From Protonemura montana (lineage: Eukaryota > Arthropoda > Insecta > Plecoptera > Nemouridae): a stretch of DNA of 64,000 nt. The notes below the pieces were generated by a model. That model was given only the letters and a program-made list of their open reading frames with translations. It was not told the DNA's origin and searched no databases. Shown here piece by piece: positions 1 to 53,975 of the stretch; within the stretch, counting starts at the first letter, position 1, and each line of letters opens with the position of its first letter. A program made the translations under genes and the position numbers. The DNA lies in contig OX387609.1 of NCBI GenBank assembly GCA_947568835.1, positions 1,616,001 through 1,680,000 of the forward strand, in the 5' to 3' direction.

Positions 1-1010
1 TCTCCCGAACAGAACTGGTCATATGTATGATGGTCACCTATCCAATACCTGACCCAGCGCAGTGTTGCTTAACTTTCATCCCTCCAACCTCTCTCCCGAA
101 CAGAACTGGTCATGTGTATGATGGTCACCCATCCAATACCTGACCCAGCGCAGTGTTGCTTAACTTTCATCCTTCCAACCTCTCTCCCAAACAGAACTGG
201 TTATGTTTATGATGGTCACACATCCAATACCTGACCCAGCGCAGTGTTGCTTAACTTTCATCCCTCCAACCTCTCTCCCGAACAGAACTGGTCATGTGTA
301 TGATGGTCACCCATCCAATACCCAACCCAGCGCAGTGTTGCTTAACTTTCATCCCTCCAACCTTTCTTCCGAACAGAACTGATCATGAGTATGATGGTCA
401 CCCATCCAATACCTGACCCAGCGCAGTGTTGCTTAACTTTCATCCTTCCAACCTCTCTCCCAAACAGAACTGGTTATGTTTATGATGGTCACACATCCAA
501 TATCTGACCCAGCGCAGTGTTGCTTAACTTTCATCCCTCCAACCTCTCTCCCGAACAGAACTGGTCATGTGTATGATGGTCACCCATCCAATACCTGACT
601 CAGCGCAGTGTTGCTTAACTTTCATCCCTCTAACCTCTCTCCCGAACAGAACAGTTCATTTGTATGATGGTCACCCATCCAATACCTGACTCAGCGCAGT
701 GTTGCTTAACTTTCATCCCTCCAACCTCTCTCCCGAACAGAACTGGTCATGTGTATGATGGTCACCTATCCAATACCTGACACAGCGCAGTGTTGCTTCA
801 CTTTCATCCCTCCAACCTCTCTCCCGAACAGAACTGGTCATGTGTATGATGGTCACCCATCCAATACCTGACCCAGCGCAGTGTTGCTTAACTTTCATCC
901 CTCCAACCTCTCTCCCGAACAGAACTGGTCATGTGTATGATGGTCACCCATCCAATACCTGACCCAGCGCAGTGTTGCTTAACTTTCAGCCCTCCAACGT
1001 CTCTCCCGAA
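1..1010 (-). repeat. Tandem array of 91-bp 5S rRNA-derived units (5S array A)
   Basis: About 11 head-to-tail units with an exact 91-bp period: the GAACAGAACT landmark recurs at 7, 98 and so on up to 917 without indels. Read on the - strand, each unit carries GTTAAGCAACACTGCGC and ATTGGATGGGTGACC, which match the 5S rRNA A-box region and C-box. The rest of the unit (GTTCTGTTCGGGAGAGAGG) is not 5S. The array continues beyond the window start, so its 3' tail is unseen. It ends 50 bp before a neuroligin exon, inside the preceding intron. The 5S head seen in arrays C, E and F is absent at the 1010 end. Classing it as a 5S-derived SINE (SINE3-like) is inference from motif match. Confidence 0.8.
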
Positions 1011-1060
1011 CCGACGCAGTAAAATAGGTGCAGTACCAACCAGTGCCTGTGTTCTTGCAG

Positions 1061-1212
1061 GCCAACATCGGTGGTTCGGTGCAAGGCGAGGAACTCCCCT
1101 ACGTGCTCGGGGTTCCGATGGACAACGGGAGGTTCCCACAGTCGTTCACCACACCCGAGAAGCTCTTCTCAGAGGCGATCATGACCTACTGGACCAACTT
1201 TGCCAAGACTGG
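1061..1212 (+). CDS. Neuroligin (gene 1), exon with end of esterase-like domain
   Basis: This exon encodes the part of the cholinesterase-like ectodomain that holds the family signature GEELPYVLG, followed by SEAIMTYWTNFAKTG. The 3' splice site is a pyrimidine-rich TGTGTTCTTGCAG ending at 1060. The donor GTCAGT starts at 1213. The length (152 nt) gives a phase-2 end, completed by the first base of the next exon to read TGNPNAP. In active esterases this segment holds the catalytic His before Gly-x-Glu. Here it reads SVQGEELPYV, so His is replaced by Gln, whereas the second neuroligin keeps His (TVHGEELPYV). Neuroligins are post-synaptic adhesion proteins that bind neurexin and are not enzymes. 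Upstream exons lie outside the window. Confidence 0.88.
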
Positions 1213-1274
1213 GTCAGTGTAATAAACAATTACATAAAGCTCTTTACTTTGCCTGCTTTCATTTAAAGGCGGTC

Positions 1275-1396
1275 TTTTAGTGGCACGTTAAGTAATAAAC
1301 AGCCCGTTAACCCGTCAAAAAAAACTTTTCTTATTGGCTTCGTACAAGCAAATAAAAAATTAACGTCTCGTTAGGTTCTTAACGCACCACTAAAAA
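1275..1396. mobile_element. Short inverted-repeat element (MITE-like) in neuroligin 1 intron
   Basis: The left end TTTTAGTGGCACGTTAAG (about 1275-1291) is an imperfect inverted copy of the right end CTTAACGCACCACTAAAA (about 1378-1395), with about 85 bp between. A related element sits at about 20067-20190 with the same ends in the same order. There is no coding capacity. I infer a non-autonomous DNA transposon; target-site duplication was not resolved. Confidence 0.5.
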
Positions 1397-1711
1397 ATAA
1401 TCATTGGCGTTTTCTGTAATTAAGTACGTTTTGGAGTGAACTGAAAATTAAATTGAAGAGTGTTTTTATTGGTTATAATTAATGAAAGTTTAAAAATAGC
1501 CACTTGATAGATTGGTGGGATTTAGCATTTGTACTTTTTTTTAGAAGAAAACTAAAAGCAGGCAGAAAAGAAATGCGTACTCTCAACATCTGCAATCTTG
1601 CTTTTCACTTATTTGTTTGTTTTCTGCGCTTATCGTAAGATCGTACCGGAGAGAAATGGTTCTTTATTCTACATTCAAGCAACATGGTAACGCTGTGCTC
1701 TTGTTTTGCAG

Positions 1712-1827
1712 CAATCCCAACGCCCCTCGGAGTCTAGCGTACCTGAGTCAAGGGCCCAGAGACTCTCGACAGTACGACATCGGATGGCCAGAGTATGATG
1801 CTAACAATCAAACCTACCTGAGTCTCG
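1712..1827 (+). CDS. Neuroligin (gene 1), penultimate exon
   Basis: The exon continues the esterase-like domain of the gene-1 neuroligin as NPNAPRSLAYLSQG, then GWPEYDANNQTYLSLG. The WPEYD...YLSLG block is the usual last conserved strand before the neuroligin stalk (family knowledge). The acceptor is CTCTTGTTTTGCAG and the donor GTGAGT begins at 1828. The exon is 116 nt and joins phase 2 upstream to phase 1 downstream, giving an uninterrupted frame with both neighbours. The corresponding exon of the second neuroligin (19675-19793) has identical phases. The predicted protein is extracellular here. Confidence 0.88.
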
Positions 1828-2065
1828 GTGAGTTCAATGCGCAAGCCAAGAGTTATGAAAGAATTACATGCTTTCATGAACCAATTCTCATCAACTTAAT
1901 GGTGCCAAGCAAATAAATATAAATACCATTCGCTCATTTGTAATAACATCATTCTTTCAAGATGAAACGCTGGTAAATTAAATTATATTTTATAAGAAAA
2001 CTTGAAAGTATTTTTTTTAACAATATTTTTATTCAATGGTATGGTTTGCGTTACGAAATTTATCT

Positions 2066-3268
2066 TCTAAAGTGAAATTTGAATTAAATTGCAAACGCTT
2101 GCAATGCGCGGGGTATTTTCTTATTATCAACACTATAACCGTCTCAAAAATTGATGCCCGAACGCAGACTCGAACCCCGATCTCCGCCTGTCGCGGGTGT
2201 TGCTCTAACCAATTGAGCTACTTGGACGCCGATCTCCATCTGTCGCGGGTGTTGCTCTAACCAATTGAGCTACTTGAACCCCGATCTCCACCCGTCGCGG
2301 GTGTTGCTCTAACCAATTGAGCTACTTGGACCCCGATCTCCACCTGTCACGGGTGTTGCTCTAACCAATTGAGCTACTTGGACCCCGATCTCCACCTGTC
2401 GCGGGTGTTGCTCTAACCAATTGAGCTACTTGGACCCCGATCTCCACCTGTCGCGGGTGTTGCTCTAACCAATTGAGCTACTTGGACCCCGATCTCCACC
2501 TGTCGCGGGTGTTTCTCTAACCAATTGAGCTACTTGGACCCCGATCTCCACCTGTCACGGGTGTTGCTCTAACCAATTGAGCTACTTGGACCCCGATCTC
2601 CACCTGTCGCGGGTGTTGCTCTAACCAATTGAGCTACTTGGACCCCGATCTCCACCTGTCGCGGGTGTTGCTCTAACCAATTGAGCTACTTGGACCCCGA
2701 TCTCCACCTGTCGCGGGTGTTGCTCTAACCAATTGAGCTACTTGGACCCCGATCTCCACCTGTCGCGGGTGTTGCTCTAACCAATTGAGCTACTTGAACC
2801 CCGATCTCCACTTGTCGCGGGTGTTGCTCTAACCAATTGAGCTACTTGGACCCCGATCTCCACCTGTCGCGGGTGTTGCTCTAACCAATTGAGCTACTTG
2901 GACCCCGATCTCCACCTGTCGCGGGTGTTTCTCTAACCAATTGAGCTACTTGGACCCCGATCTCCACCTGTCACGGGTGTTGCTCTAACCAATTGAGCTA
3001 CTTGGACCCCGATCTCCACCTGTCGCGGGTGTTGCTCTAACCAATTGAGCTACTTGGACCCCGATCTCCACCTGTCGCGGGTGTTGCTCTAACCAATTGA
3101 GCTACTTGGACCCCGATCTCCACCTGTCGCGGGTGTTGCTCTAACCAATTGAGCTACTTGGACCCCGATCTCCACCTGTCGCGGGTGTTGCTCTAACCAA
3201 TTGAGCTACTTGGACCCCGATCACCACCTGTCGCGGGTGTTGCTCTAACCAATTGAGCTAGATAATGT
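2066..3268 (-). repeat. Element with 21 tandem 52-bp tRNA-derived units (tRNA array 1)
   Basis: GTTGCTCTAA recurs every 52 bp from 2199 to 3239, giving 21 copies with no indels. On the - strand each unit reads TAGCTCAATTGGTTAGAGC, a good tRNA A-box/D-arm, then an anticodon-arm-like CACCCGCGACAGGTG and GGAGATCGGGGTCC. Only the 3'-terminal unit (about 2140-2200) continues into a B-box (GGGGTTCGAGTC) and a GGGCATC acceptor-like end. Beyond that is a unique body with CCCCGCGCATTGCAAGCG. The same arrangement occurs at 26395-27225. The array fills most of the intron between two neuroligin exons and is antisense to that gene. I infer a tRNA-derived SINE or similar element whose 5' module has been iterated. 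Confidence 0.85.
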
Positions 3269-3835
3269 TTTGTAGGATATCAGTGTATTTGATGAGAATG
3301 ACGGATCTCCAAGGAGTAGAACCAAGAGACTGTGAATACTCACAGTCACTCTGATTCTAGTGACGCTATATCACGTCACGACCTGTCAAACTCGAGTAAC
3401 TTCAATTTGACATTGGATTCGTTTTTTATTTCGTGAAATCTGATTTAAATTGCAAACGCTTGCAATGGAAACGAAACAATTTTAAATGCGATTTTTAAAT
3501 CTAAAAACAGAAGATATCTTGCACTTAAATAGATTTATTTAACAGAGTTTCGTATTATTTTTGTGCTTGGTGAGATCAACGCACTTGCAACTGTTTAGAC
3601 TTTCTATTTTTGTCCGGTCGTTTGTTGAATGACTCAACTGGGCACTGCTTGTCTCTGGACAGCGCTGACACGTGGAATTCATCTGTTTCTGTTGAAACAA
3701 AGGTTGATTCATTTGTCTTACCAGCTTTGAATTATTTAACAAACATACCTTGAGAGTGAAAAGACGCATGTGGTCCACGTTATTCCAACACTTTCATGAG
3801 ATATCTGTTTCTAAAGTTACGCTCGATTCTTGCAG
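3269..3835 (+). other. Remainder of neuroligin 1 last intron
   Basis: This is non-coding intron. A sequence like the outer flank of the preceding array (TTAAATTGCAAACGCTTGCAATG) recurs at about 3445-3466. The fragment TGTCCGGTCGTTTG near 3612 resembles TGTCCGGTCGTTTG at 19315. The intron ends in GATTCTTGCAG at 3835. I see no other feature. Confidence 0.5.
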
Positions 3836-5925
3836 GGATACCACCGAAACACGGCCACCAATACCGTAAAGAGCTGATGACCTTCTGGAATCAAGACCTA
3901 CCAGATCAGCTGAAGAACCCAGCCAATAGCAATCCACGTCTCATCAACCCACCTCACCTTCTCGACATCGACCCCCGGATGGAGGTATCACCCCCGTGGA
4001 ACCGGCCACCACCAAAGAGCCCTCAGGATCGCTACGAAAACTTCGAGAAGCCCTTCCTGAACCCGTACCGTCCCACACGCCGACCGACATTCGGTAAAGT
4101 TCTGCACGAAGAGAGCGGCGTCAAGGCTAAAGGCTTGATGGACGGCCCATCTGGGTCCGTGCACGAAGCCTCGACTATAGTTCCACCCGTAATTCAAGCA
4201 GGTAACTCGTCGATGGCCTTAACATTGGTTATCATCATCGGCGTCTGCTTTTTAGTGGTAAATCTTTGTGCTTTTGCCGCCCTGTACTACCAACGCGACC
4301 GACTGAAGATACAAGAGCGAATCATGAAGCGACGAATCGACGAGACCATTCGATTGGAGGAGGAGGGCACGTACGCCAAACGCGTCAAGGTCGACTTTAA
4401 GGTCGCCGACAAAGAGTGCAAAGACGGTGACGGTATCTACGAGGCGGTGAGCAAAAAGACAGGCGAGATGAGCACCGAAAACGTAGCCAACATGAAGCGC
4501 TGGCAACGTCAGGGCAGCACGAGCACGATGGATGCGCACACGAAAGTGCGCGAGTGGATCCAACAGGAGATCGTGCAACGCTGTTCGCCGCGTTTCCTGC
4601 GGCGCACGCGCCAACATCTGCACCAGCAAAAGTCGGAGCGTGAGCGTCAGCTGGGCGCTAGCACCGAGACGGGCTTGTCGTCGTCGGCGCGCGACGCTGG
4701 CGCCACGACGCCCAACTCGAAGGCGACGACGCTCAGCACTTTGCAGCGCAAGGTGAAGAAAGTGTCGGTCGCCGTCGACGCGACGCCGGCGGCGCGGTCG
4801 GCGTCCGTGCAGAAACAGGTGCCGATCGAGTTGAGTAAGTCTTTGGACGCGTTGACCAATTTGACGACTGCGCACCGTCCGATTCTGAAGCGGTCCAACA
4901 CGACGATGGATGAGAACTTGGTGAAACCAGAGTCGCCGAAAGTGTTGCGTCGTAGCACGACCAGTATCAACCTGTTGCCGTTTGCACAGAAGGACGGCGA
5001 AGAGGACGAGGACGAGGTGTTGATCATTAGTCACGGCCACTCGCACTCGGCGCCGGTGCCGTTCACGATGCCGTACCTCGGGGAGCTGGCGGCCGACATA
5101 GCGCCCGGCAACTCGCAGAGCATGAAGCCGCACATCGTGGACATCGCCACAATCGACGGAAACGTCAACGCGTACGTGAAGACGCCGCCGAAGTCGATGT
5201 CCACATTCCCGACGCTGGCGCCGAAGAAGGTGGCGAAGAGAGACGCCGCCGCCGGCGCCGGCTACAGCGGCACCGACATCAACGTGACGTCGCGCGACAG
5301 CAACGAGGCCGTGAACACCGCCAGCGAGGATCCGGTGTCGAATTTACAGCGGAGAAACTTTCCGAAAGTGCTTCCGGACCTTCCGGTCGAGGATTTGAGC
5401 GGCGAGTCGTTCACTCCGCAACAGGCGGCAATGAAACGGCGGTCTTTGCCGCCGTCAAACATCCTACTTAACCTCTTGACACCAGTTCCTGAGGCTGACT
5501 CGTCGCAGCCGACCACCCCTACCGGAGGTTGCAACAAAAAGCCTCCGCCGCCTCCACCAAGAGTATCCTCTACTCTCGGCAGGAAGCCGACAAACACGAC
5601 TCCAATTCTGGGTGGCAGAAAGCCTCCGGTCATAATCACGCAGGGGAAGAATGCTGGCTCCCATATACAAAGACAGGAGCCAAAGATTATAATAAAAGCG
5701 ACCAGTACGACGCCTGTTACGCGTAATGTGAAGGGTCAGACGAAGGGGACGACGATGTCGGCTATCCCGAGGGTGACGGCGAACCCGGAGGCGACGACGA
5801 CGGGGGCGAAGGAGAAGGCGACTAAGAAAGCGCCGAAGAAGGACTCAGAAACGTCAACGGACGATGATAATAGTTCTAATACGGGGACGATAAAGCGTGT
5901 GGTCAAGATTGACAAAAAGAACTGA
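3836..5925 (+). CDS. Neuroligin (gene 1), terminal exon: stalk, transmembrane span, long tail
   Basis: This exon encodes the last 695 residues and the stop. It opens with GIPPKHGHQYRKELMTFWNQ, the usual neuroligin post-esterase segment, then a Pro-rich juxtamembrane stalk. One membrane span (VIIIGVCFLVVNLCAFAALY, about 4213-4284) follows, then YYQRDR at the cytoplasmic border, as in other neuroligins. The tail is about 545 residues, far longer than in vertebrates; long tails are usual in insects. It is Lys/Arg/Ser/Thr-rich with a six-proline run at 5541-5559, a likely SH3/EVH1-type site. It ends VVKIDKKN, without a recognisable PDZ ligand. The acceptor is TTCTTGCAG at 3835. The tail is much more GC-rich than its surroundings. 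Identity as a neuroligin is firm; which paralogue is not. Confidence 0.9.
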
Positions 5926-6800: not shown

Positions 6801-6874
6801 GTTACCTTTTTTTTTCAAATATACCCGACTTTTGTATTTTAAGATACTTTACTGAAAAAATAGCTTTAAAAATA

Positions 6875-7443: not shown

Positions 7444-7477
7444 TCAACAAAAAAGTCATAACCGTTTCAGGTGTTCT

Positions 7478-8044: not shown

Positions 8045-8563
8045 GCATGGCATGGCAAGGCATGGCATGGCATGGCAAGGCAAGGCATGGCTTGGCATGG
8101 CATGGCATGGCATGGCATGGCAAGGCATGGCATGGCATGGCATGGCATGGCATGGCATGGCATGGCATGGCAAGGCATGGCAAGGCATGGCATGGCAAGG
8201 CATGGCATGGCATGGCATGGCATGGCATAGCAAGGCATGGCAAGGCATGGCAAGGCAAGGCATGGCATGGCATGGCAAGGCATGGCATGGCATGGCATTG
8301 CATGGCAAGGCAAGGCAAGGCATGGCATGGCATGGCATGGCATGGCATGGCATGGCATGGCATGGCAAGGCAAGGCATGGCAAGGCAAGGCAAGGCAAGG
8401 CATGGCATGGCATGGCATGGCATGGCATGGCATGGCATGGCATGGCATGGCATGGCAAGGCAAGGCAAGGCAAGGCATGGCATGGCAAGGCAAGGCTAGG
8501 TATGGCATGGCATGGCAAGACAAGGCATGGCATGGCATGGTATGGCATGGTATGGCATGGCAA
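8045..8563. repeat. Pentanucleotide satellite (GGCAT/GGCAA)n
   Basis: About 103 tandem 5-bp units that are nearly all either CATGG or CAAGG, plus rare TATGG, CTTGG, CATTG and CATAG. It lies wholly inside the intron of the secreted-peptide gene. It is open in all frames because neither unit creates a stop; these frames are not genes. Confidence 0.97.
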
Positions 8564-9105: not shown

Positions 9106-9500
9106 TAAATGTAAAAACCTGCCCGGCGGTGATCAAACGCATGCCTTCTGGTGTCGTAGCAAGCACGCGAATCATAGAGTCAAGGTGGACATTTTATAAT
9201 GGATGCCATTAGAGGCATAATTACCAATGACATCATTGCCAATAACTAATTGTCAAAAGAAAGTAATGCAACCGATAACTTTTCTGTATTATAGCCAAGA
9301 AAAAATCCAGGTCAATAATAACTACATTTAAAACATGTCTTAGCAACATAGTCCTTAAACAGAACTTAAAAGGTTCATTCATTTTTCAAAAACCAAAAAG
9401 TATCCCATTGTTTGGTTTTGAACTTGGACCTTATGCACTTGTTCAAGACGAATCAACCGCTCGACCACCGAGCGAGTACGGGATCGTTTAGTTTTCATCA
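9106..9500 (-). repeat. Degenerate partial unit at the edge of the macrosatellite
   Basis: Weak matches to the downstream part of the 1.68 kb unit: GATCAAACGCATGCC near 9131 (tRNA-like module T2) and the T3-type stretch at about 9410-9475 with ACCGCTCGACCACCGAGCGAG. Divergence is much higher than between the internal units, as expected at an array edge. Confidence 0.5.
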
Positions 9501-11182
9501 TGCCTATAAATTGGTACGTGACAATGCCAGCCTGCGATAGCCGAGCAAGTAGTATTTTGTTACCGATCGATGTCCAATATTAATTGATCAAGTTCGTTTG
9601 ATAGCCAACAGGTTGCGCTAATGATCATTTTTCCATCACTAGTGCTGGTTCGGTGATACTTGGTGCATGTCTAGGGTACGAGTGCGCACATGAAAGTATC
9701 AGCTGGCTTACCACCAGCCGGGCTCCATCGCCTTGATCTGTTAAGTCGGATTTTGGCATTCGGTGGAAATGCATCTTTTTTGGAGTGACAGGGAGCTGGT
9801 GAAGGCAAGGTGCAATCATTGCTTGCACTTGTCTGTCTCTATGCACTCAGTGCGCTGAGTGTACAAAGTGTTTGTTGCACTTCGCATGAATTGATAAAGC
9901 ATTAATGTCCAAGTGCATGCATGCATTATGTGCGAAGTGCATGTGGCATAATGCTTGAGGTAATGCAGATATTAATCTAGTTTTCGATCATTCCGCTGCG
10001 AGCGCTTCACTGACGTCATCGCCGCAGGGAGAAAATCTTGAACGGGAAATTGTTTTCCTTTTTGAAAGCATAACCGCGAAAAGCGTCGCGATGTCGACGA
10101 CTACGCCACCTGGCAGCCAGACTGGAATTGACCGATTATGAAAAATTATTTGCAAAAAAAAAATCTTGGTGTGGAGAATGAATAATGTGATTTTATAAAC
10201 AAAAAATCTTCATTCATCGGGAATCGAACTCGGTACCTTCACCACATGAGACAGATGCACTAACCGCTCGACCACTCGAGCTGCTCTGTAAGGATTCAGT
10301 TTTTTAAGACTAATAAACTGATAAGATGAGACAAATGCGAGAAAAAAATCTGAACAAATCTCGACCACTTCATCGACGATTTTTGATCAGAAAATATTTC
10401 GAAGGCATCAATATATTTCATCTGCTAAAATTTTGCCCATCCTTGTCAATCACAAGAAATAATTTCGAAGTCTTGTTCAGTTTCCTCTTCCTGAATCGTT
10501 CACCATGGATGAACAAACTGTCATTCAACACAACCATGCGTCCAAAACAATGTTTTCGACCCGAACTACCCACGTAGTTTAAATCTTGCCGCCACCGCCA
10601 GCAGCGCTGCACGTCACTGCAGTTCACCACACAGGCCTCGACCGCATGGAGAGAAACACCACCGGGCCTTCATGACATCACATAGGAATATTGGATCGAG
10701 TTGTAGCGCTTCAATTTGATATCAATGTTGCAATCAGCGCTGCCTGTCGGCAGAAACTGGCATTCATTCTGGAGTGCGTCTTAGTATAATGATTTGACAC
10801 CAGAGCGACCTGAGCTAGGCAAAGCCAAAAAGCTGCTCGGTCGGGGATCGAACGCATGCCATCTGTTTGCGAAGCAAGTGCGCTAGCCACGGAGCCACAG
10901 TGCAGATGTAGATTTCAGTGATTATAGAGGCACAGTAACATAAGAAGGCTTATGGAACCGAATTGTTTTCTACTTAGCAGCCATGGCAGATTTGTAATTC
11001 AATTATTACTACATTTAATATATGTCTTAGCAAGATGGTCACTAAACGGATCACAGTTAGTATTTTTTTTAAAACCAAAAATTGCCGCGCTACAAGGATG
11101 CGAACTCGAACCCTGTGCGATTGAAGCAGACGACATTACCGACCGACCACCGAGTATCAACTAGCTAATATAGTTTTCGTTC
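9501..11182 (-). repeat. Macrosatellite unit 1 (1682 bp) with three tRNA-like modules
   Basis: The unit is bounded here by the landmark TGCCTATAAATTGG. It contains T1 (10206-10290), T2 (10831-10907) and T3 (11083-11157), all tRNA-like on the - strand. It also has a near-palindrome at 9844-9861 and TGACGTCAT at about 10011. Two reading frames recur in other units (about 9625-9846 and 10418-10630, - strand) but look incidental. Confidence 0.85.
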
Positions 11183-26394: not shown

Positions 26395-27225
26395 GGATTA
26401 AATCTGATTTAAATTGCAAACTCTTGCAATGCGCGGGGTATTTTTATTATTATCAACATTAGAACCGTCTCAAAAATTGATGCCCGAACGCGGACTCGAA
26501 CACGATTTCCATCTATCGCGGGTGTTGCTCTAACCAATTGAGCTTCTTGGACCCCGATCTCCACCTGTCGCGGATGTTGCTCTAACCAATTGAGCTACTT
26601 GGACCCCGATTTCCATCTGTCGCGGGTGTTGCTCTAACCAATTGAGCTACTTGAACCCTGATCTCCACCTGTCGCGGGTGTTGCTCTAACCAATTGAGCT
26701 ACTTGGACCCCGATCTCCACCTGTCGCGGGTGTTCTTCTAACCAATTGAGCTACTTGGACCCCGATCTCCACCCGTCGCGGGTGTTGCTCTAACCAATTG
26801 AGCTACTTGGACCCCGATCTCCACTTGTCGCGGGTGTTGCTCTAACCAATTGAGCTACTTGGACCCCGATCTCCACCTGTCGCGGGTGTTGCTCTAACCA
26901 ATTGAGCTACTTGGACCCCGATCTCCATCTGTCGCGGGTGTTGCTCTGAACCATTGAGCTACTTGGACCCCGATCTCCATCTGTCGCGGGTGTTGCTCTA
27001 ACCAATTGAGCTACTTGGACCCCGATCTCCACCTGTCGCGGGTGTTGCTCTAACCAATTGAGCTACTTGGACCCCGATCTCCACCTGTTGCGGGTGTTGC
27101 TCTAACCAATTGAGCTACTTGGACCCCGATCTCCACCTGTCGCGGGTGTTGCTCTAACCAATTGAGCTACTTGGACCCCGATCTCCACCTGTCGCGGGTG
27201 TTGCTCTAACCAATTGAGCTACATA
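26395..27225 (-). repeat. Element with 14 tandem 52-bp tRNA-derived units (tRNA array 2)
   Basis: GTTGCTCTAA-type landmarks run from 26524 to 27200 at 52-bp spacing, giving 14 units. The orientation and body match array 1: TTAAATTGCAAACTCTTGCA, then GCGCGGGGTATTTT, then a B-box-bearing terminal unit. The outer flanks (TAGTGTAATTTTGATGAAAA against CAGTGTATTTGATGAGAA in array 1) are also alike, so the shared element extends past the array. It lies antisense-neutral in the neuroligin 2 intron, on the same strand as that gene. Confidence 0.85.
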
Positions 27226-28258
27226 GACACATGATTTTTGTGACAATTTTAGTGTAATTTTGATGAAAATGTGCTTTTTTGATAATTCCATTTGAAACGG
27301 TTCTAGTGTTCATAACCATACATATACACGATGTTCATATATCGGAAAAAACTGTAAAGTGATTTCCATTTAGCTTGATTTTGGTTGTGTTTTCTTGACC
27401 AGCCATGTTTTACACATTTCAGATTCATGTTTTTCATGAAAAACAATTTAATAACTAAGCACAATTGTGCTCAGTACAGCAACACACTGTGTTGATCGTT
27501 ATCGCAATGTCCAACACTGTGCTCAGTACAGCAACACACACTCTGTTGATACTTATCGCAATGTTCAACACAAATAAACAATAGAATTGTCAACCAACCA
27601 GGATCGGGATTACAAATATTAAACTCAAATAACATCCGTAATTCTCAGTTGCAAAGCAAAGCAAGGAAAATCTATCGCTGCACTCGTGCTACAAGTTTTC
27701 ACACAAAATACAGAATATATGATTATTAATTTACAACATTCCATTTCGCCCAAATGAGGGCAACGAGTAAACTTGACATGCAACTGAATTCGCGTTATAA
27801 TTACTGGTACTGCATCGCGCAATTGTCTAATCAAAGTTGGTATTTCCGCGGTCGAGCAAATAGTTTTCTGATTAGAGGGGCCGTGCTTCAACGATTCACC
27901 TGACCGTGCCCTTATTACAGACGTCCCGTACCCAATCGGGGTCAAAATATTGGATTGGCGAATGATTTATTTGCAAGAAATGCATTCCCGTTTTGCTGCA
28001 TTACTTCCTTTGCGTGGCTTCTATTGGAAAAGCGATTCTTGTTTGGCAAAATTTGGTAATTCATTGGTTTTGAACTTGATTAATTAATATTAATTAAGTG
28101 AACCAACCTCGGTTTGAGAGTATTTAAAACTGTCGTTTCAGTTTTATTTTATGAGCAGGTTTTTAGTTAAGGTGAAAAGGAATAGACACATACAAATTTG
28201 ATGAATCAGATGAATCTGCGTTTTGCAGATAAATTAGGCGATAAATCTTGGATTATGA

Positions 28259-29381: not shown

Positions 29382-29423
29382 ATAAGAGAGGTTCATGGAA
29401 AGAGGTTCATGGAAAGAGGTTCA

Positions 29424-40051: not shown

Positions 40052-40745
40052 GACCAGTTCTGTTTGGGAGAGAGGTTGGAGGGATGAAAGTTAAGCAACA
40101 CTGCGCTGGGCCAGGTATTGGATGGGTGACTATCATACACATGACCAGTTCTGTTCGGGAGAGAGGTTGGAGGGATGAAAGTTAAGCAACACTGCGCTGG
40201 GTCAGGTATTGGATGGGTGACCATCATACACATGACCAGTTCTGTTTGGTAGAGAGGTTGGAGGGATGAAAGTTAAGCAACACTGCGCTGGGTCAGGTAT
40301 TGGATGGGTGACCATCATACACATGACCAGTTCTGTTCGGGAGAGAGGTTGGAGGGATGAAAGTTAAGCAACACTGCGCTGGGTCAGGTATTGTATGGGT
40401 GACCATCATACACATGATCAGTTCTGTTCGGGAGAGAGGTTGGAGGGATGAAAGTCAGTACAGCAACTTCACTCGCCTTGCTTATCAACCTCTCGACAGC
40501 ATGGATTTGTGGAGGAATTCTGTTGTTCGCGTTGTACCGTCCTTCGGAAGGGACGTTAAGCCGGTGGTCCCCTTGGTCTTCGACTTGAGAAGGCTACGTG
40601 GCGGCACCGGGTTTTCCCTCCTCCCTTCTAGGCTAGGCTTGGTTTATTATCATCAACCAGTCATTCACCGACGCCATTAGACCAGTGCCAGATGGCCAGT
40701 TGTCAAATCAGTGCGTCATTAAACACAAAACATCAATCAATCACC
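40052..40745 (+). mobile_element. 5S-derived SINE-like element with five 91-bp units and tail (array B)
   Basis: The 91-bp unit landmark AGACCAGTTC/TGACCAGTTC recurs at 40051, 40142, 40233, 40324 and 40415. A common tail follows from about 40455 (CAGTACAGCAACTTCACTCG). It includes the stem-loop CGTCCTTCGGAAGGGACG with GTTAAGCCGG, and ends GTGCGTCATTAAACAC near 40725. The 5S head is missing, so the 5' end may be truncated. Confidence 0.8.
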
Positions 40746-41317: not shown

Positions 41318-42085
41318 ATTGATTGATTATCGGGGTTCAACGACGCACTGTATTGACAACGAGCCATGCAGCGCTAGTCTGATGGCGTCGGTGAATGAGT
41401 GGATGATGATGAGAATGATGATGAACCTAACCTAGCCAGAAGCCAGGCTGGTCAATAGCCTACACCTGTCGAAGAGCACCAAAGGGATCACCGGCTTAAC
41501 GTCCCTTCCGAAGGACGGTACAACGCGAACAACAGGATTCCTCCACAAATCCATGCTGTCGAGAGGTTGATAAGCAAGGCGAGTGAAGTTGATGTACTAA
41601 CTTTCATCCCTCCAACCTCTCTCCCGAACAGAACTGGTCATGTGTATGATGGTCACCCATTCAATACCTGACTCAGCGCAGTGTTGGTTAACTTTCATCC
41701 CTCCAACCTCTCTCCCGAACAGAACTGGTCATGTGTATGATGGTCGCCTATCCAATACCTGACCCAGCGCAGTGTTGCTTAACTTTCATCCCTCCAACCT
41801 CTCTCCCGAACAGAACTGGTCATGTGTATGATGGTCACCCATTCAATACCTGACTCAGCGCAGTGTTGGTTAACTTTCATCCCTCCAACCTCTCTCCCGA
41901 ACAGAACTGGTCATGTGTATGATGGTCATCCATCCAATACCTGACCCAGCGCAGTGTTGCTTAACTTACATCCCTCCAACCTCTCTCCTGAACAGAACTG
42001 GTCATGTGTAAGATGGTCACCCATCCAATACCTGACCCAGCGCAGTGTTGCTTAACTTCGGTGATCTCATAAGAGCCGATATTTT
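41318..42085 (-). mobile_element. 5S-derived SINE-like element with five units and 5S head (array C)
   Basis: Complete in the - orientation. The 5' head on the - strand is ATCGGCTCTTATGAGATCAC, then CGAAGTTAAG, which follows the 5S rRNA sequence upstream of the A-box. Five 91-bp units follow, then the tail from about 41605 down to 41318 with the same CGTCCTTCGGAAGGGACG stem-loop. Units alternate between TTGCTTAAC and TTGGTTAAC variants. Confidence 0.85.
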
Positions 42086-45000
42086 AAACACGTCAAACTA
42101 TGTTTTCCGTAAATCCTCTTTTAAATTTACAGAATTCACCTTTATTTTTGGCCATTTAACAAAACGACACCAACTATAACAACAAGGAATTATTACAGCA
42201 AACTAAATCATCCCGGAAATTGGACCACACGGATTAGATATTATATCACAACACGCACGTAAAGATCTATATTTCGAATAGAAAATAAAAAAGTGGATTT
42301 CGTTTTTGGCTGCTATCCCACTTTGCCATGAAACCCAGTCGCAGCATCCAGAGCTCCCCAATTCTCGGTTCTCCCCGTTTTACGCATTTGCTCGAGCTAA
42401 AATCATTACACCAAAGGTTTAATATGTTTTTCGTTTCTGCAATCCTCTTAAGATATGTTTTACAGATACATGGCCGCAATAAAGTATGAACTTGGGTATA
42501 GGAGGAACGTTTGAAAACGCCCAGCTTTCTCGTAGAAACTTAACCAACGTTGTATCCGTATATGCTGGCCAACTGTATTGGTTGTGGGAACTATATATAT
42601 ATAGGCGAGGAAAGAGGGAAGGACGTAGCGACTTCTATCCAGACAATGTTAAGGGAAAAGAGTAACACTAGTGTTAGAATGGTTGTGATGCTAGAGTGTT
42701 TCTGAGGGGTAACCTAATAATGTGTCCTGTTGGTCTACCATGTTAGGGTGTGTGTGTTTTTTTCGATTGTCTTTCCGGAGGGTTTTAGTAAAATTTGTGG
42801 TCGAGACGTTGTTTGCAAAGGGTTTAGGGTTGTGGGTTCGGTGTTGCCTTGCAAAACTTATCCTTTGAAATGTTACAAATGATAATTATCGTAAAGTGCT
42901 AACTTCGTTTCCCTTTCCTTTTGCTTGTTCAGTTTATTGCACCGAGAGCGGCGGAGATGCGTGTTGTTAGGATGACTCAAATGTTCTGGTGCCACAATGA
43001 CTTTGAATAGACTTACAAAGAAGCGGACATATTATAAAATCACATGAAACATTCTTGACTGAACAAAAATATTTTTTCATTGAGTCTTGTGGTCTTTTGG
43101 TTACCACTCTTTTGTGAAGGGTGTTTAGTCCTAAAACGGACTCCTTCTGATGTTTTGTTAGAGAGTCTCATCCTGAAGATGAGTCTCACCCTGACGATGA
43201 CAGAACGACCTCTGACCAAAAGTCGGGAGACGTAAGTTTTTGGACTAAAAACCCTAAATAAAAGCATGAATCGAATTGCTACAAGACTCATATACTAACG
43301 GGTCTTAAAATGTCAAAGAAACCATCTTTTAAATTGTTCTTTTAGGTTATAAATTCAAATAAAATCATTTCCTGCAAGCTTTCAAAATAAAATCAGAATC
43401 AAAACAGATTTAATTAAAGAAAATAATGCGAAATGAAACTAAGCGAATTGTCAATAGTGACTCGGTATCCGCTTTCTGTCCATTAAAAGGCGATTGCAAG
43501 TTAATATTAAGAGACTTGAGAGCAGGAGACAGCTGATTGCCAGCTTCGAGTTTGATTTATTTGAGCAAGTATACGGTAAGTCCCATCAATATCTTGCAGC
43601 CAGCAGTTGCCTCGGGGCTGGACCACTTTGCCAGGCACGCTTTAGTTCGTATCTATTTCCTGTCAAATCTCGGATCGCTTGGCCGGAATACGTTTGAAGG
43701 AATCCCGGATCATTCATTGTTAAATATCTGTTCGATTGTTCCTGGCTATACACGGATTTTCATATCAGGGTACAATTGTTTATTACTTCTAGTGTAAGTA
43801 CGTCACAGAAAATAACGGTAATATATTACAACATTGATGAAGAGAGTTCTTGTTAAACTTATAAGGAAATGCATTCCATTTCTTAACTCTGGTAAATGCA
43901 AACTCATTATCAAAGAAGTAACAAAATCAACTGGTAACAAAAGTTAATAATTTGCAAGACTTTTTAAATCTAACAAATTGACTAAAGTTTAAACAAATGT
44001 TTAGTTGATTTGCATTTAAAGACTCACTTTTTGTTATGGCAATGCCACTGGAGGTACCATTTTTTTTAAATCGTATCCAAGACTGTAATTTTCCAGAAAT
44101 TGGGCAGTGGATATGAGAGCAAATTGAAGACACTACCAACTTTAGGTCTTCGAATATATCTTCCCCAATATCCAACTCAGATAGTCAAGATTTTCATGCA
44201 CAGGCTAAGACAGGAACATCATCAATACAGACTTCGTTCCTCAATTTCAAGCTTAACTTCTCAGCCACTGAGCTGAGAAATCCATTCCAAATATCGTCCA
44301 ATATCATCTTGTAGCAATTGCAGCATCCATTGCTCCGCCCTTATTCAAGTACATACCATAGCTACAAGATTGTACTCCCTGGACCATCTCTCCCCCTCTC
44401 TCTCTCTCTCACGTATTGTCCTACTAGCTCCATCTCTCTTATGCGACACATTTAATTACTCTAGCCGTGGAAACCGCTTACATTCACCGTCTTTCTTCGC
44501 GCTCTGCGACAGATCTTGAGTGCTTATTTCGATAACGTTGCTTTTACTTAATTAACACTAATTAAAAAAAAATCTTTAAAAGATTCAGAATAATAACTCT
44601 GAATAATCTCTTAATTTACTAAATTAAATTGCATCTTTGCAACTATGATAGTTTGTATTGTCATTACGAATGTTTTATAAAACGTTTTATTAGGTTTTAA
44701 TGAAATTAAAGACGGTTCCTAATTAGGTAAGTAAATAAAGCCTGCAATTTATCTTGGAATTTGTTATCAAAAAGATTGTCATCAAACATTATGTCCATAG
44801 CTTTTCAGAAAGCGTTTGACTAAAATTGAAAGGTTTAGCGTGTTTACACCTGTTTGATATTATGCAACATGTAATTATGTTTCATCTCAGGTATGAACCT
44901 AATTATATAACCCTGTGTACAAACATTAATACAGGTTTTCAAGCCAATAAGGTATGATGTTGAGACTTACTTTCAGGTTTCCCAGGTTTATTAGAAATAT

Positions 45001-45395: not shown

Positions 45396-45399
45396 ATCA

Positions 45400-46149: not shown

Positions 46150-46442
46150 AGAGGTTGATAAGCAAGCCGAGTGAAGTTGCTGCACAAACTTTCATCCCTC
46201 CAACCTCTCTCCCGAACAGAACCGGTCATGTGTATGATGGTCACCCATCCAAGACCTGACCCAGCGCAGTGTTGCTTAACTTTCATCCCTCCAACCTCTC
46301 TCTCGAACAGAACTGGTCATGTGTATGATGGTCACCCATCCAATACCTGACCCAGCGCAGTGTTGCTTGACTTTCATCCCTCCAACCTCTCTCCCGAACA
46401 GAACTGGTCATGTGTATGATGGTCACCCATCCAATACCTGAC
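46150..46442 (-). mobile_element. 5S-derived element with three units, truncated at both ends (array D)
   Basis: On the - strand three 91-bp units are followed by only the first about 40 nt of the tail (GCAACTTCACTCGGCTTGCT). The 5' side stops inside a unit at CCAATACCTGACC. Confidence 0.8.
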
Positions 46443-48539
46443 CTACTGGTTCGGCATGGGACTGAATATATAAACCCAAAGGTAGTATTGTGTCTTTTTA
46501 TTTAAGAAAGTTTTGAAGTCACTTTGCAACATTCTCTAAGCAAAACAGCGCAAAGTAAAAGCGATCAGTAAAAATGACCCCCCATCTAGGCAATCACCTT
46601 TGCTCTGGCGTGCGATGAGAGCAACTCAAATTTGAGCGGAAAGTCAATTTCCGAGCTCGTGTGCGCTTGTGAACGCCAGAGGGGGGCGCAAAAAAATAAC
46701 AGCTGAGATTTCCAGCCGCCCCACTGTTGTTCGTAAGGGTGAACATGTAAAGCTTTAGCCTAACGTCGTCGTCCTTATTGCACGTGCTACGATGCAATGA
46801 AAGGAAATTGAGGATTAAGGGTGTACGTAAGATGAGAGAATAAAACTGCGACGGATGGAGGAGCGAGTTGAGTGTTATTTTTTGAATAGCCCTGGGTGGG
46901 TGTGTGTTTTCTCGTTTTTTTATCTAGTGGTATGACGTACTACTCTTATTTGGGGCAAGGATGAAACAGGATTAGGTGGGAAGACTTTATTTATAGCTTT
47001 TATTTTATTTTTCAGGAATTGCGATTCAATAACTGGTTTAATAAATACTGATTTAGTGGTCTTTTCAGACAATTTGTTTTGAATGAATGTTATTTGTTTT
47101 GATGGTAATTAACTAAATTGCTTTAAATAACTACTCAATTAATTTTTTGCCAGACTTTGTTTCAATTTTAAACAACCTTGATCAACTTTGAGACCAATAA
47201 CAATACGGCTCACAGTTGAAAAGCTGATTAAAATTCGTAATTTATATTTAAAAAAATGGGTTGTTGGCTCTTTTTTGTGTGTAAAACTTAATGCACAAGG
47301 GAACTTTCATCTTTTGTGAATAATTTTGTTCGGCAGGAAGTATATTTCCTAAAAAAGATATCTAAGATTTTAGTCGGAGCACTCGGCACCTACATCAACA
47401 CAACTTTTGATGAGCAACGATTATCGTAATTAAGATAAGCAACTTTTTCCAAACAATTCAATGTACCTACTAGGTGCTAGGGGTCAAAAGCCTCCATGAT
47501 CTCTTATGGGCTATATTTTTTTTAAGTACCCAAGCCAAAAAATTTCATATTTTCCTTGATTTCAACAGAAACTTTATCGATATTTTTAAAGTGATCACTA
47601 AATACATCACTAAAGAACATAAATAAGAAGTAAAATATTATTCTAAAAGTTAATACTCTATTTAAGAGTTTGACTGATATTGCCTGTTACACCGGATGTC
47701 CAATTTAAAAACACTATTAACACGGTCAAGTTTGGGAAAGTACCTTGGCAAAATACAGCGAGCAATTTCCCAGAGTAAACACTGCGCTAATACGGCCGGT
47801 GAATTCGGTCACTCGATTGACATTTCCCATTAAATTCCGTTCACTGTTTACCCAACGATTTGAAATCGCGAGGAAATAAAAGAACTGGCTTGTCACCACC
47901 TAACTCGCTTTACCCAAAACCACTAAAAGCATATAAACGTAGTAACATTATTACGTTACACAACACTGTGCTTGCGACCGAACCAACTTTTACAGCGAGG
48001 GTGGAAATAAAAAAAAAAAAATTAGATTTATAAGAATGTATAGGAACGCATTAAAGCTTTAGGTTGGTTTATTTCTGAAGCTAGAAAATGGTGAAAATCC
48101 AATACAAATATCTCTAATTGTATAAAACTGACTTTATAGTAGTGAAATATATTGTCTGGAGATGTCATTTGAGTACAATACAAGTATATGATCAATTGTG
48201 TTGAGAGCGGCGAGGACGGGAAGAGGATTTAGGGGTTGCTGAGGGTTAAAACTAAAAGGGGGTGGAGCATTAGGCTTTTGCTTTCAGAGAGAAAGCTCGT
48301 AAGTTCCCGTTACTGTCGCCGGCGTTCTAATTTGTGATGCTGTTATCTTTACAGTTTCAAAGATTCAAAGCAAAGAAGCTGGAATGTCTTGGTCGTACAG
48401 TCCTTACGGGCTAAGAAGTCGGCGAACTCTGAAACTGAATTGTTTTCAGACTACACACTTTCTAAACTTTCTTTTTTAATGTTTAAATATGTGTTTTTTT
48501 TTGTGCCAGATGTGGGTGGAAAATTCGATGGGAGCATTT
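46443..48539. other. AT-rich stretch
   Basis: A GC-richer island at 46560-46800 contains CGCCAGAGGGGGGCGCA (46674-46690), a good vertebrate-style CTCF-like motif. Another moderately GC-rich segment is at 47690-47930. No gene is recognised. Confidence 0.4.
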
Positions 48540-48544
48540 TCGAC

Positions 48545-49138: not shown

Positions 49139-49139
49139 A

Positions 49140-50184: not shown

Positions 50185-51285
50185 ATCACCGAAGTTAAGC
50201 AACACTGCGCTGAGTCAGGTATTGGATGGGTGACCATCATACACATGACCAGTTCTGTTTGGGAGAGAGGTTGGAGGGATGAAAGTTAAGCAACACTGCG
50301 CTGGGTCAGGTATTGGATGGGTGATCATCATACACATGACCAGTTCTGTTCGGGAGAGAGGTTGGAGGGATGAAAGTTAAGCAACACTGCGCTGGGTCAG
50401 GTATTGGATGGGTGACCATCATACACATGACCAGTTCTGTTCGGGAGAGAGGTTGGAGGGATGAAAGTTAAGCAACACTGCGCTGGGTCAGGTATTGGAT
50501 GGGTGACCATCATACATATGACCAGTTCTGTTCGGGAGAGAGGTTGGAGGGATGAAAGTCAAGCAACACTGCGCTGGGTCAGGTATTGGATGGGTGACCA
50601 TCATACACATGACCAGTTCTGTTCGGGAGAGAGGTTGGAGGGATGCAAGTTAAGCAACACTGCGCTGGGTCAGGTATTGGATGGGTGACCATCATACACA
50701 TGACCAGTTCTGTTCGGGAGAGAGGTTGGAGGGATGGAAGTTAAGCAACACTGCGCTGGGTCAGGTATTGGATGGGTAACCATCATACACACGACCAGTT
50801 CTGTTCGGGAGAGAGGTTGGAGGGATGAAAGTTAAGCAACACTGCGCTGAGTCAGGTATTGGATTGGTGACCATCATACACATGACCAGTTCTGTTCGGG
50901 AGAGAGGTTGGAGGGATGAAAGTTAAGCAACACTGCGCTGAGTCAGGTATTGGATGGATGACCATCATACACATGACCAGTTCTGTTCCGTAGAGAGATT
51001 GGAGGGATGAAAGTTAGTACAGCAACTTCACTCGCCTTGCTTATCAACCTCTCGACAGCATGGATTTGTGGAAGAATCCTTCTGTTCGAGTTGTTATGTC
51101 CTTTAGTGCTCTTTGACAGGGATAGGTGCCAGCACCAGGTTTCTCCTGCTTTCCTTCTAAGTTAGGTTAGGTTCATCATCCTTATCATTATCACTTAATC
51201 ATTCACTGACGCCATTAGACTAGTGCCGCATGACCAGTTGTCAAAACAGTGCGTCGTTAAACATCACAAATCAATTAATCAACAA
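50185..51285 (+). mobile_element. 5S-derived SINE-like element with nine units (array E)
   Basis: The head ATCACCGAAGTTAAGCAAC begins at about 50186. The AGTTCTGTT landmark then recurs every 91 bp from 50251 to 50979 (nine). The tail runs 51015-51285 but lacks the CGTCCTTCGG stem-loop present in B, C and F, which has been partly deleted (GTTATGTCCTTTAGTGCTC). It ends CAGTGCGTCGTTAAACATC. Confidence 0.85.
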
Positions 51286-53119
51286 TGAAGAAGTAGATTC
51301 AATGACAATTCATTGACGGACCAAATTAATTTTATGCATAAAGAAAAAATTGAAATATTGTAAAGTGCTAAATTTTAATATCTGGATAAGTAAATATCTT
51401 TGAGTTACAACTCATCTCCATGGTAACAGCTTATTTAACACATACATTTGTAACTGAATCTCCAGTTATCCTCGTATTCAAGTAATTTTATCTTATAAGT
51501 ATTTTGCAGTTAGGCAAGAAGTCTTGAAACTGTTCATTTGCAAGGGACACAACTTAAAGTCACATTCGATCTAAATTCTAAGAAACATAGTGCACTTAGC
51601 TGACATCAACATCAAACAGGTCGACATAAGTTATCAAAAACAAGCAAATGATGCACAAATATCGGATGTTTGCTACGCTTAGCTCGTGCTCTGACACAAG
51701 TCGATAACTATGCTTCACAAGCTGCACAAGCTTTCAGTAAAATACACTCGCTCGCTGTAAAATCGAGCCCAGGAGCGATGAACACATAAAGGCCAGTCTC
51801 GCCTGAACGCCAGCGAGCGTACATAGCACTTTGCCATGTCTGAGTTATTCACAATGATAAGCAAATGTGTCCCTTAAGTAGAGCCGAGTTATCGGCCATA
51901 TATGCACAGGTGTTGTGCCGGCAAGTCCTGGAGGAGTGAAGAAGAAAATACATACTTTTATTTTATAACTCTGGGGAAATGTCGAGGAAATGTAGACTCG
52001 AAATCTGGCCTTTTATGTCTACGTGACATTTTACTTACGGAATGTTGAGACGGGTCTTTTGTAGAATGTAAATAAATTAGAGAGGGCATGTCGCAAAATG
52101 GCGGACAATTAAAATGGCAAGGTGGCAGTTAAAAGACTGTCGAGTCGAGATGTTTCAGAAGGTAAATTACGAAGAGTGACGTTTATTTTATATACCTTTC
52201 GAGACGGTGAAGAGAGATTTAATTAAAGCGACTACGACCTTTGTTTATTTGCTAACTGTTATTGACTGATGTGTGTTTTTTAAGTACCTAAGTGGGGCAA
52301 AAGGCAAAAAAAAAAAGTTTTTAACAAAAAAATTGGAATGGTTAAAGCGTAGGTACCCTTTTGCCACTTAGCCACGAAACTCCCTCTCAACCTAACGTTA
52401 CCAACCTAACGTAACCACCATGTTAAAAACTTTACGAACAGCCATTACAGGTCCAAGTTTGGTGAACCGTTGGGGAGGTGGGGGGGTGGGCACGACCATC
52501 CCATAGCGACAAAACAATCGCTTCACCAACACAGAAAGCTCTAGCGACAAACTTCAAGACTCATAATTTCGTTAGTTTCGCGTGTTGCTAACGGGCGCCC
52601 GCTTTTCTTGCGGTGTCAACCGACGCACCCCAAAAAGAGGACCGCAAAGTTTGAAAAAATAAATAAAGAAAATTGGAAATGTGTCGTGTGGCGGAGTGAT
52701 TCCAAAGTTACAGTTGTCATTGTGCCGAATTTCAGACGAGGGACTAAACTTTTGCGACAGAGATTGGTTATGAATTCAGTTTATTTATTTTATTATTTTT
52801 TCCTCTGCGATGCTTTTGTGCAGGTGGCTAACGGTTCTTTTGCTCGCGGCTTTAGCTTGGATTACGTTTTCACACCTTCCGACGTTTACACTTTGGATCC
52901 GTTTGTGTGTGGGTTAATAACCTTTTTTTTTTGTAAAAATAAGCTACGGGCTTTTGAATCTAATGCATAGGGCACAATTTTATCCTGTAAAAGCTCCGTG
53001 GAATCAAATTATTATCAAGGCTGTGAGGTTGTTTTATTGAGTTCAGAAGAAATTAGAGGGTCATGCTTCTTTATAAGGGTGATTACGACGGTTAAAAATG
53101 AAAAGATTGGTTTGTTGCA
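51286..53119. other. AT-rich stretch with GC-richer patches
   Basis: No exon is recognised. Patches at 51690-51930 and 52560-52900 are GC-richer; the second is open for 120 codons (52608-52970) with no recognisable product. Candidates for regulatory sequence or a UTR exon only. Confidence 0.3.
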
Positions 53120-53975
53120 AACACCGGTTCTCATAAGATCACCGAAGTTCAGCAACACTGCGCTGGGTCAGATATTGGATGGGTGACCATCATATACATG
53201 ACCAGTTCTGTTCGGGAGAGAGGTTGGAGGGATGAAAGTTAAGCAACACTGCGCTGGGTCAGGTATTGGATGGGTGACCATCATACACATGCCCAGTTCT
53301 GTTCGGGAGAGAGGTTGGAGGGATGAAAGTTAAGCAATACTGCGCTGGGTCAGGTATTGGATGGATGACCACCATACACATGACCAGTTCTGTTCGGGAG
53401 AGAGGTTGGAGGGATGAAAGTTAAGCAACACTGCGCTGGGTCAGATTTCGGATGGGTGACCATCATACACATGACCAGTTCTGTTCAGGAGAGAGGTTGG
53501 AGGGATGAAAGTTCAGCAACACTGCGCTGGGTCAGGTGTTGGATGGGTGACCATCATACACATGACCAGTTCTGTTCGGGAGAGAGGTTGGAGGGATGAA
53601 AGTTAAGCAACACTGCGCTGGGTCAGGTGTTGGATGGGTGACCATCATACACATGACCAGTTCTGTTCGGGAGAGAGGTTGGAGGGATGAAAGTTAGTAC
53701 AGCAACTTCACTCGCCTTGCTTATCAACCTCTCGACAGCATGGATTTGTGGAGGAATCCTGTTGTTCGCGTTGAACCGTCCTTCGGAAGGGACGTTAAGC
53801 CGGTGGTCCTCTTGGTCTTCGACAGGAGTAGGCTACGAGTCAACACCGGGTTTTCCTTGCTCTCTTCTAGGCTAGGTTAGATCATCATAATCCACTTATT
53901 CAGCGACGCCATTAAACCAGTGCCACATTGCTCGTTATCAAAACCGTGCGTCGTTAAACACCACTAATCAGACAA
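53120..53975 (+). mobile_element. 5S-derived SINE-like element with six units and long 5S head (array F)
   Basis: This element has the most complete 5S head: CACCGGTTCTCATAAGATCA, then CCGAAGTT, following arthropod 5S rRNA from before the A-box. Six 91-bp units follow (AGTTCTGTT at 53204 to 53659), then the full tail 53697-53975 with CCGTCCTTCGGAAGGGACG and GTGCGTCGTTAAACACC. Confidence 0.88.

What the first reader, a model, noticed from the sequence alone, without database searches (positions are those of the whole stretch)
1..53975. Two unrelated Pol III promoter types are tandemly multiplied in the same region
A tRNA-type module (52-bp A-box unit, 21 and 14 copies) and a 5S-type module (91-bp A-box/C-box unit, six arrays) have each become tandem arrays. 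The 5S arrays B, C, E and F, and part of D, keep a shared element tail, so the arrays sit where the 5' promoter head of a SINE would be. The macrosatellite adds a third form. Independent iteration of the promoter end in two SINE classes suggests a shared process, for example template switching or slippage at the 5' end during reverse transcription, or selection for many TFIIIA/TFIIIC sites. Sequence periods and motifs are seen; the mechanism is inference.
Basis: partly seen in the sequence, partly recalled or inferred. Interest (0 to 1): 0.82.

Follow-up and report, generated by a model that had tools for sequence, protein, structure and literature searches.

The report
SINEs with tandemly multiplied promoter heads
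In this animal genome two families of small mobile elements carry from one to about twenty head-to-tail copies of their promoter-bearing front part, in thousands of places and mostly near chromosome ends; it is a new and extreme variant of known satellite-forming small elements, and shows no sign of selection for promoters.

Summary
Observation confirmed, and far wider than the window. A 5S-rRNA-headed SINE has, genome-wide, at least 2,804 single-head and 4,144 multi-head copies (91-bp unit) and 19,444 internal units, roughly 0.9% of 258 Mb. Multi-head copies keep the SINE leader and tail, and have target-site duplications about as often as single-head ones (8 of 21 against 14 of 33; mismatched pairs 2.8%). 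The tRNA-headed family has at least 558 multi-unit copies.

Iteration is not confined to promoter ends: SINE tails (36 bp, 2,771 junctions) and an inner 15-bp piece iterate too. Three of five unit boundaries lie at 6-bp repeats present in the single-head element. The C box is no more conserved than spacer, and the tRNA unit lacks the B box. Multi-head copies lie near chromosome ends (57 of 67 against 19 of 50 listed places on C1, p=1.7e-7).

Best reading: a multi-head SINE subfamily spread by retroposition, its arrays remodelled in DNA, like SVA VNTRs and squamate SINE-derived satellites. New variant of a known kind.

The parts
1..1011 (-). 5S-type array A, 91-bp unit, 11.1 copies, cut by the window edge; in an intron of a neuroligin-like gene; no leader or tail in the window
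2085..2173 (-). tail of tRNA-type element 1 (B-box-like motif, T5, palindromic end)
2174..3260 (-). tRNA-type array 1, 52-bp unit, 20.9 copies
3261..3309 (-). diverged 5' leader of tRNA-type element 1
26409..26502 (-). tail of tRNA-type element 2
26503..27222 (-). tRNA-type array 2, 52-bp unit, 13.8 copies
27229..27271 (-). 5' leader of tRNA-type element 2
40052..40455 (+). 5S-type array B, 4.4 copies, starts inside a unit
40456..40743 (+). SINE tail of B
41332..41597 (-). SINE tail of C
41598..42058 (-). 5S-type array C, 5.1 copies
42059..42098 (-). 5' leader of C
46150..46186 (-). first ~40 bp of the SINE tail of D
46187..46443 (-). 5S-type array D, 2.8 copies
50192..51016 (+). 5S-type array E, 9.1 copies, preceded by the last bases of the leader
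51017..51281 (+). SINE tail of E
53107..53144 (+). 5' leader of F
   Evidence: Rfam 5S match 53097-53217
53145..53696 (+). 5S-type array F, 6.1 copies
53697..53976 (+). SINE tail of F

Best explanation
The 5S arrays are the head of a 5S-rRNA-headed SINE (leader, internal 5S-type promoter, tail). In an ancestral single-head element the stretch from the A box to past the C box was duplicated between two AAGTTA repeats 91 bp apart. Elements with a multiplied head then spread as a subfamily by retroposition, carrying the array. At each locus the array was later lengthened, shortened and partly homogenised by slippage or unequal exchange in DNA, and such arrays are found chiefly near chromosome ends. 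The tRNA-headed family underwent the same kind of tandem growth on its own (52 bp), and so did pieces of the SINE tail. Shown: anatomy, counts, target-site duplications, association of the leader type with head number, block duplications inside arrays, chromosome-end bias. Inferred: retroposition of ready-made arrays, the DNA-level mechanism, and any transcription.
For: Leader and tail kept around the array, and target-site duplications as often as in single-head copies. Units within an array differ nearly as much as units of different arrays (5.1% against 5.6%, 38 arrays), so arrays formed early. Leader position 39 is T in 21 of 33 single-head but 2 of 23 multi-head copies (p=3e-5; best of 9 leader sites tested), and a tail deletion is in 3 of 34 against 14 of 37 (p=0.005). 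6-bp repeat at the 91-bp boundary (0.3% of possible breakpoint pairs). Rare variants shared inside loci: 80 pairs against 15.6 in shuffles; a six-unit block repeated in L086. Multi-head copies near chromosome ends.
Against: The tail tree shows no clustering of multi-head copies beyond chance (19 changes against 21.8; 74 of 500 shuffles as low), though one clade is not rejected (AU p=0.47); it is poorly resolved. First units of different loci are no more alike than first and last units (5.7% each). In arrays of 4 or more heads the units are nearer their consensus than the tail is (2.5% against 5.0%, p=0.004), which simple co-inheritance does not predict; the contrast with single-head copies is borderline (p=0.052). 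The chromosome-end bias needs an added cause. The 92-bp junction has no microhomology.
Confidence: 0.5

Rival explanations
1. Local satellite growth only (the squamate sSat model): ordinary single-head insertions are seeds, each array arose in place, and exchange between loci near chromosome ends makes units alike everywhere.
For: Chromosome-end bias in both families; shared rare variants and block duplication inside loci; segmental duplicates L023 and L025 share tail and 3' flank but have 6 and 3 units (their 5' flanks differ, so the duplication may have broken inside the array); several unit types from one SINE, tail included; variants typical of single heads fall from first to last to internal units (hand tally); no tail clade seen.
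Against: Needs pervasive exchange between loci, because units within an array are almost as different as units of different arrays. Leader and tail types, outside the array, are associated with head number. 70% of rare-variant occurrences (270 of 389) are not shared inside their locus.
Confidence: 0.3
2. Template switching at the 5' end during reverse transcription makes the arrays at insertion.
For: 92-bp unit begins exactly at the SINE's first base and joins without microhomology (2,340 junctions); arrays formed early; a head-to-head inverted tRNA element lies inside one 12-bp target-site duplication (L068).
Against: The 91-bp junction, the common one, is internal and lies at a 6-bp repeat. 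Block duplication shows change in DNA. It does not by itself explain the chromosome-end bias.
Confidence: 0.15
3. Selection or transcriptional advantage of many Pol III promoter units.
For: Each 5S unit holds A box to C box, and the consensus 5S element has no T4 run that would stop Pol III (5 of 217 array units have one).
Against: No box-specific conservation in arrays; tRNA unit lacks the B box and a T5 run follows soon after it; tail units iterate as well.
Confidence: 0.05

Closest known systems
SINE-derived satellites (sSats) of squamate reptiles, PMC10702118 (abstract, Results parts 1 and 2 of 3, Discussion read)
   Same: Tandem units that are parts of SINEs (70-290 nt), thousands of loci in many snakes, variable copy number, unit may hold a promoter box, preference for subtelomeric regions.
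   Different: There most loci keep one SINE end and copies with both ends are called minor or uncommon; here leader, tail and target-site duplications are commonly kept. There the SINEs are tRNA-headed; here the main family is 5S-headed, the whole internal promoter is the unit, and multi-head copies outnumber single-head ones.
SVA/LAVA VNTR composite retrotransposons, PMC4432496 (abstract and the section on microhomologies read)
   Same: Non-autonomous retroposon that carries a tandem array; array remodelled at the DNA level with microhomologies.
   Different: There the array is a central GC-rich VNTR; here it is the promoter-bearing 5' head.
PcH-sat of a limpet, derived in part from a Nin-SINE, PMC11121367 (abstract read)
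   Same: Satellite DNA related to a SINE in an invertebrate.
   Different: Pericentromeric satellite of 179-bp monomers, about 10% of the genome; not described in the abstract as arrays inside dispersed elements.
Cg_HINE Helentron elements of the Pacific oyster, PMC7492417 (abstract read)
   Same: Short satellite-like arrays dispersed inside mobile elements.
   Different: DNA transposons with central repeats, not 5S- or tRNA-headed elements.
Cassandra elements in plants, PMC7215508 (search listing only; 5S link recalled)
   Same: A retroelement with 5S-like sequence that occurs in tandem arrays.
   Different: An LTR-type element (recalled); whole elements in tandem.

Membership tests
5S-rRNA-headed SINE (SINE3 type; label recalled) | head derived from 5S rRNA with A box to C box | tested here: met
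   alignment to a 5S gene of the same genome; Rfam match
5S-rRNA-headed SINE (SINE3 type; label recalled) | dispersed copies flanked by target-site duplications | tested here: met
   exact repeats of 8 bp or more in 22 of 54 complete copies, mismatched pairs 2.8% (one place counted twice)
5S-rRNA-headed SINE (SINE3 type; label recalled) | 3' end shared with a partner LINE | not tested
   no LINE searched; several copies end in short A/T-rich repeats
MetaSINE superfamily (recalled, no paper seen) | conserved central Meta domain | not testable with these tools
   no repeat library; resemblance of CCTTCGGAAGGGACGTTAAGCC is from memory
tRNA-derived SINE | A and B boxes | tested here: inconclusive
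   motifs by eye; no tRNA called; B-box motif only once per array
tRNA-derived SINE | target-site duplications at the element ends | tested here: inconclusive
   clear by eye in 3 of the 20 loci with a leader (L048 11 bp, L049 13 bp, L068 12 bp; no shuffled control)
tRNA-derived SINE | full-length Pol III transcript possible | tested here: not met
   T5 run 16 bp after the B-box motif in the consensus
SINE-derived satellite (sSat) | tandem units that are parts of a SINE, many loci | tested here: met
SINE-derived satellite (sSat) | preference for chromosome ends | tested here: met
   on listed places of C1 (5S) and C1-C3 (tRNA)
SINE-derived satellite (sSat) | homogeneity rises with array length | tested here: inconclusive
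   head number against unit divergence rho -0.23, p=0.07
VNTR composite retroposon (SVA-like) | array transmitted by retroposition | tested here: inconclusive
   leader association for; no tail clade seen, none rejected

The most novel reading that the evidence does not exclude
A SINE family whose Pol III type-1 promoter is itself a variable-number tandem repeat that is transmitted by retroposition: multi-head RNAs are reverse-transcribed, each 91-bp or 92-bp unit is a possible start site, and the 92-bp form arises by template jumping at the RNA 5' end. Head number would then be a heritable trait of the element.
Probability: 0.25. Interest if true: 0.75.

Novelty: new variant of a known kind. 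Interest (0 to 1): 0.5.

Why it matters
It gives thousands of natural experiments on how an interspersed element turns into a satellite, with both element ends and target-site duplications kept, so that insertion and array growth can be timed apart. It also asks what Pol III does with a row of complete internal 5S-type promoters. It extends SINE-derived satellites, described in squamates, to a 5S-headed family in another animal genome.

Tried and rejected
Rejected: expansion only in this window; chance (zero matches for reversed controls in all 11 pattern searches); arrays of tRNA or 5S genes (no tRNA called; one Rfam 5S hit). The macrosatellite as a third form: B-box-like motifs but no hit of either element.

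An early result that units are far younger than tails (ratio 0.31, 5 unselected loci) shrank when I compared loci chosen alike (18 single, 14 multi: units 6.5% and 5.8% between loci, tail 31-180 about 6-8% and 7-9%) and left out the poorly aligned tail part; I rely only on the weaker form. I expected first units to match across loci if arrays are inherited by position; they do not. Consensus units are dominated by array units, which biases unit divergence in their favour. The tail tree could not decide. An idea that truncated arrays start at an internal transcription start was looked at by eye and left: too few copies.

One search counts internal and last tRNA units together (2 mismatches apart) and singles and first units together; I use for last units and only exact rows for positions. 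Listings show only the first ~100 places. The positions and the site tallies (4 x 100 listed rows) were read off the listings by eye and typed in. 5S positions were tested on C1 only (67 of 100 and 50 of 100 rows), tRNA on C1-C3 (25 of 86 exact rows and 88 of 100). Internal rows are not independent, as many come from one array.

Dropped as duplicates: L039-2670 (the window itself), L090 (same place as L035), L043+1994 (same place as L031). still hold one or more of these. No repeat library is available, so family names were not tested. The species was not identified.
Full report
Anatomy. The window (C12:1616001-1680000 of a 258.5-Mb genome; an animal, by the neuroligin-like gene) holds two 52-bp and six 91-bp arrays as described. 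The 91-bp unit runs from the A box past the C box of a 5S-headed element, with a ~40-bp spacer. In full elements it lies between a 48-bp leader (ACCGAACGG...CACCG), most of which also aligns to 5S, and a ~300-bp tail. Single-head copies have the same leader, one unit and the same tail.

Genome-wide counts, at most 3 mismatches, lower bounds. 5S family: 8,896 unit-tail junctions, 2,804 single-head copies, and for multi-head copies 2,832 first units, 4,144 last units and 19,444 internal units. First, last and internal units make ~26,400 units, ~2.4 Mb, ~0.9% of the genome; internal/last + 2 gives a rough mean of 6.7 heads. tRNA family: 1,835 B-box-tail junctions and 558 last units of multi-unit arrays. 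In the fetched sample of 57 complete 5S copies, which is not random, head number is 1 (34), 2 (4), 3 (7), 4 (1), 5 (5), 6 (5) and 8 (1); an array cut by the end of its locus has 14 (L086).

They are insertions. An exact repeat of 8 bp or more between 5' flank and 3' end is found in 8 of 21 multi-head and 14 of 33 single-head copies (one single-head place, without a repeat, is counted twice), against 2.8% in mismatched pairs. Examples: 20 bp in L087 (2 heads), 15 bp in L088 (3 heads), 10 bp in L013 (5 heads). In the tRNA family L049 (5 units) has 13 bp (no shuffled control).

Breakpoints. TRF on the loci shows further SINE-derived arrays: a 92-bp head unit from the first base to the C box (L015: 7 copies, followed by five 91-bp units and the tail; L059), a 36-bp tail unit (L065, 11 copies) and a 15-bp inner unit (L009, 92 copies). 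Genome-wide there are 2,340 and 2,771 junctions of the 92-bp and 36-bp kinds. Direct repeats at the boundaries in the single-head element: 6 bp (91), 6 bp (36), 6 bp (15), 1 bp (92), 2 bp (52, within an imperfect 8-bp repeat); 6 bp or more is met by 0.3% of possible breakpoint pairs. So iteration is not a property of the promoter end alone.

When did arrays form? Units within an array differ by 5.1% on average, units of different arrays by 5.6%; 28 of 38 arrays have the lower value within. Late local growth from one unit would give a much lower value within. Yet 119 of 389 rare-variant occurrences are shared inside a locus, 80 sharing pairs against 15.6 in shuffles (maximum 28 in 500), in 21 of 38 arrays. 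L086 repeats a block of six units. The segmental duplicates L023 and L025 share tail and 3' flank but have 6 and 3 units; their 5' flanks differ, so the duplication may have broken inside the array. So arrays mostly existed early and were then remodelled in DNA.

Inherited or not? Leader position 39 is T in 21 of 33 single-head and 2 of 23 multi-head copies (p=3e-5; the best of 9 leader sites tested). Leader position 37 (p=0.003) and a tail deletion (3 of 34 against 14 of 37, p=0.005) differ too; the best of 32 tail sites (p=0.006) would not survive correction. Position 39 is T in 7 of 10 single-head copies near ends and 6 of 7 inside chromosomes. This suggests a multi-head subfamily. Against it, the tail tree shows no clustering beyond chance (19 changes against 21.9 and 21.8; 64 and 74 of 500 shuffles as low), though one clade is not rejected (AU p=0.47). 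Variants typical of single heads fall from single to first to last to internal units: site 22 A 73, 59, 38, 26; site 34 A 31, 17, 8, 0; site 47 T 25, 8, 2, 0; site 69 T 18, 17, 10, 5, of 100 listed rows each (hand tally; single against last p=1e-6, 6e-5, 1e-6, 0.15). This suggests that array interiors come from a common pool. In arrays of 4 or more heads (18 loci) units lie 2.5% and tails 5.0% from consensus (p=0.004); the contrast with 32 single-head copies (4.6% and 5.2%) is borderline (p=0.052).

Where. On C1 (33.1 Mb), 57 of 67 listed exact multi-head but 19 of 50 single-head places lie in the outer 10% at either end (p=1.7e-7); at 5% it is 23 of 67 against 3 of 50 (p=2e-4). For the tRNA family on C1-C3, 18 of 25 against 14 of 88 lie in the outer 5% (p=2e-7), 21 of 25 against 52 of 88 in the outer 10% (p=0.03). 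The window lies 1.6 Mb from the start of C12 (18.2 Mb).

Function. Variation per site in 217 units of arrays: A box 0.021, middle 0.045, C box 0.032, spacer 0.024; in 35 single heads 0.031, 0.056, 0.049, 0.046 (duplicates not yet removed). No box-specific constraint is seen in arrays; in single heads the A box is the least variable part. The 5S consensus has no T4 run (5 of 217 array units have one); the tRNA element has T5 soon after the B box, and its unit lacks the B box. Transcription was not tested.

Known relatives. The nearest found is SINE-derived satellites in squamates (PMC10702118), with partial SINE units, thousands of loci and subtelomeric preference; there copies with both SINE ends are called minor or uncommon. 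SVA/LAVA VNTRs (PMC4432496) share microhomology-driven remodelling at the DNA level inside a retroposon. My nine searches of the open-access library listed no title or abstract start about a SINE with a tandemly multiplied 5S head; the library lacks most subscription papers, so this is no proof of absence. Overall: a new variant of a known kind.

Noticed in passing
L068, L050, L047, L059 (tRNA-family loci): Copies of the tRNA family are preceded by an inverted copy of their own tail or of the whole element (head-to-head dimers); in L068 the pair lies inside one 12-bp target-site duplication.
   Followed up: partly
window 9312-17157: Macrosatellite of ~1.69-kb units, ~4.6 copies, 76-89% alike, with B-box-like motifs.
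   Followed up: partly
window 8045-8562, 24780-25233, 28259-29382, 60725-62553: Further arrays with no link seen to either element: GCATG x104, 41 bp x11, 15 bp x75, 92/277 bp x20/6.6.
   Followed up: no
window 1028-5925: Last exons of a neuroligin-like gene (carboxylesterase domain E=1.7e-8; best solved relatives neuroligins); array A and tRNA-type array 1 lie in its introns.
   Followed up: partly
L125 (last 61 bases of C1): The right end of C1 is (TTTGG)n rather than the common animal telomere TTAGGG (recalled); telomere or satellite not decided.
   Followed up: no
G000 C11, first ~106 kb: True 5S genes recur with a ~9.5-kb period, two on one strand and one on the other.
   Followed up: no
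G000 C1 near 25.10, 26.09 and 28.87 Mb: Places with very similar 5S and tRNA elements, probably segmental duplicates; not compared in sequence.
   Followed up: no
L049:1-634: A 68-bp array (9.3 copies) with a 22-bp match to the middle of the 5S SINE tail; possibly one more SINE-derived unit.
   Followed up: no
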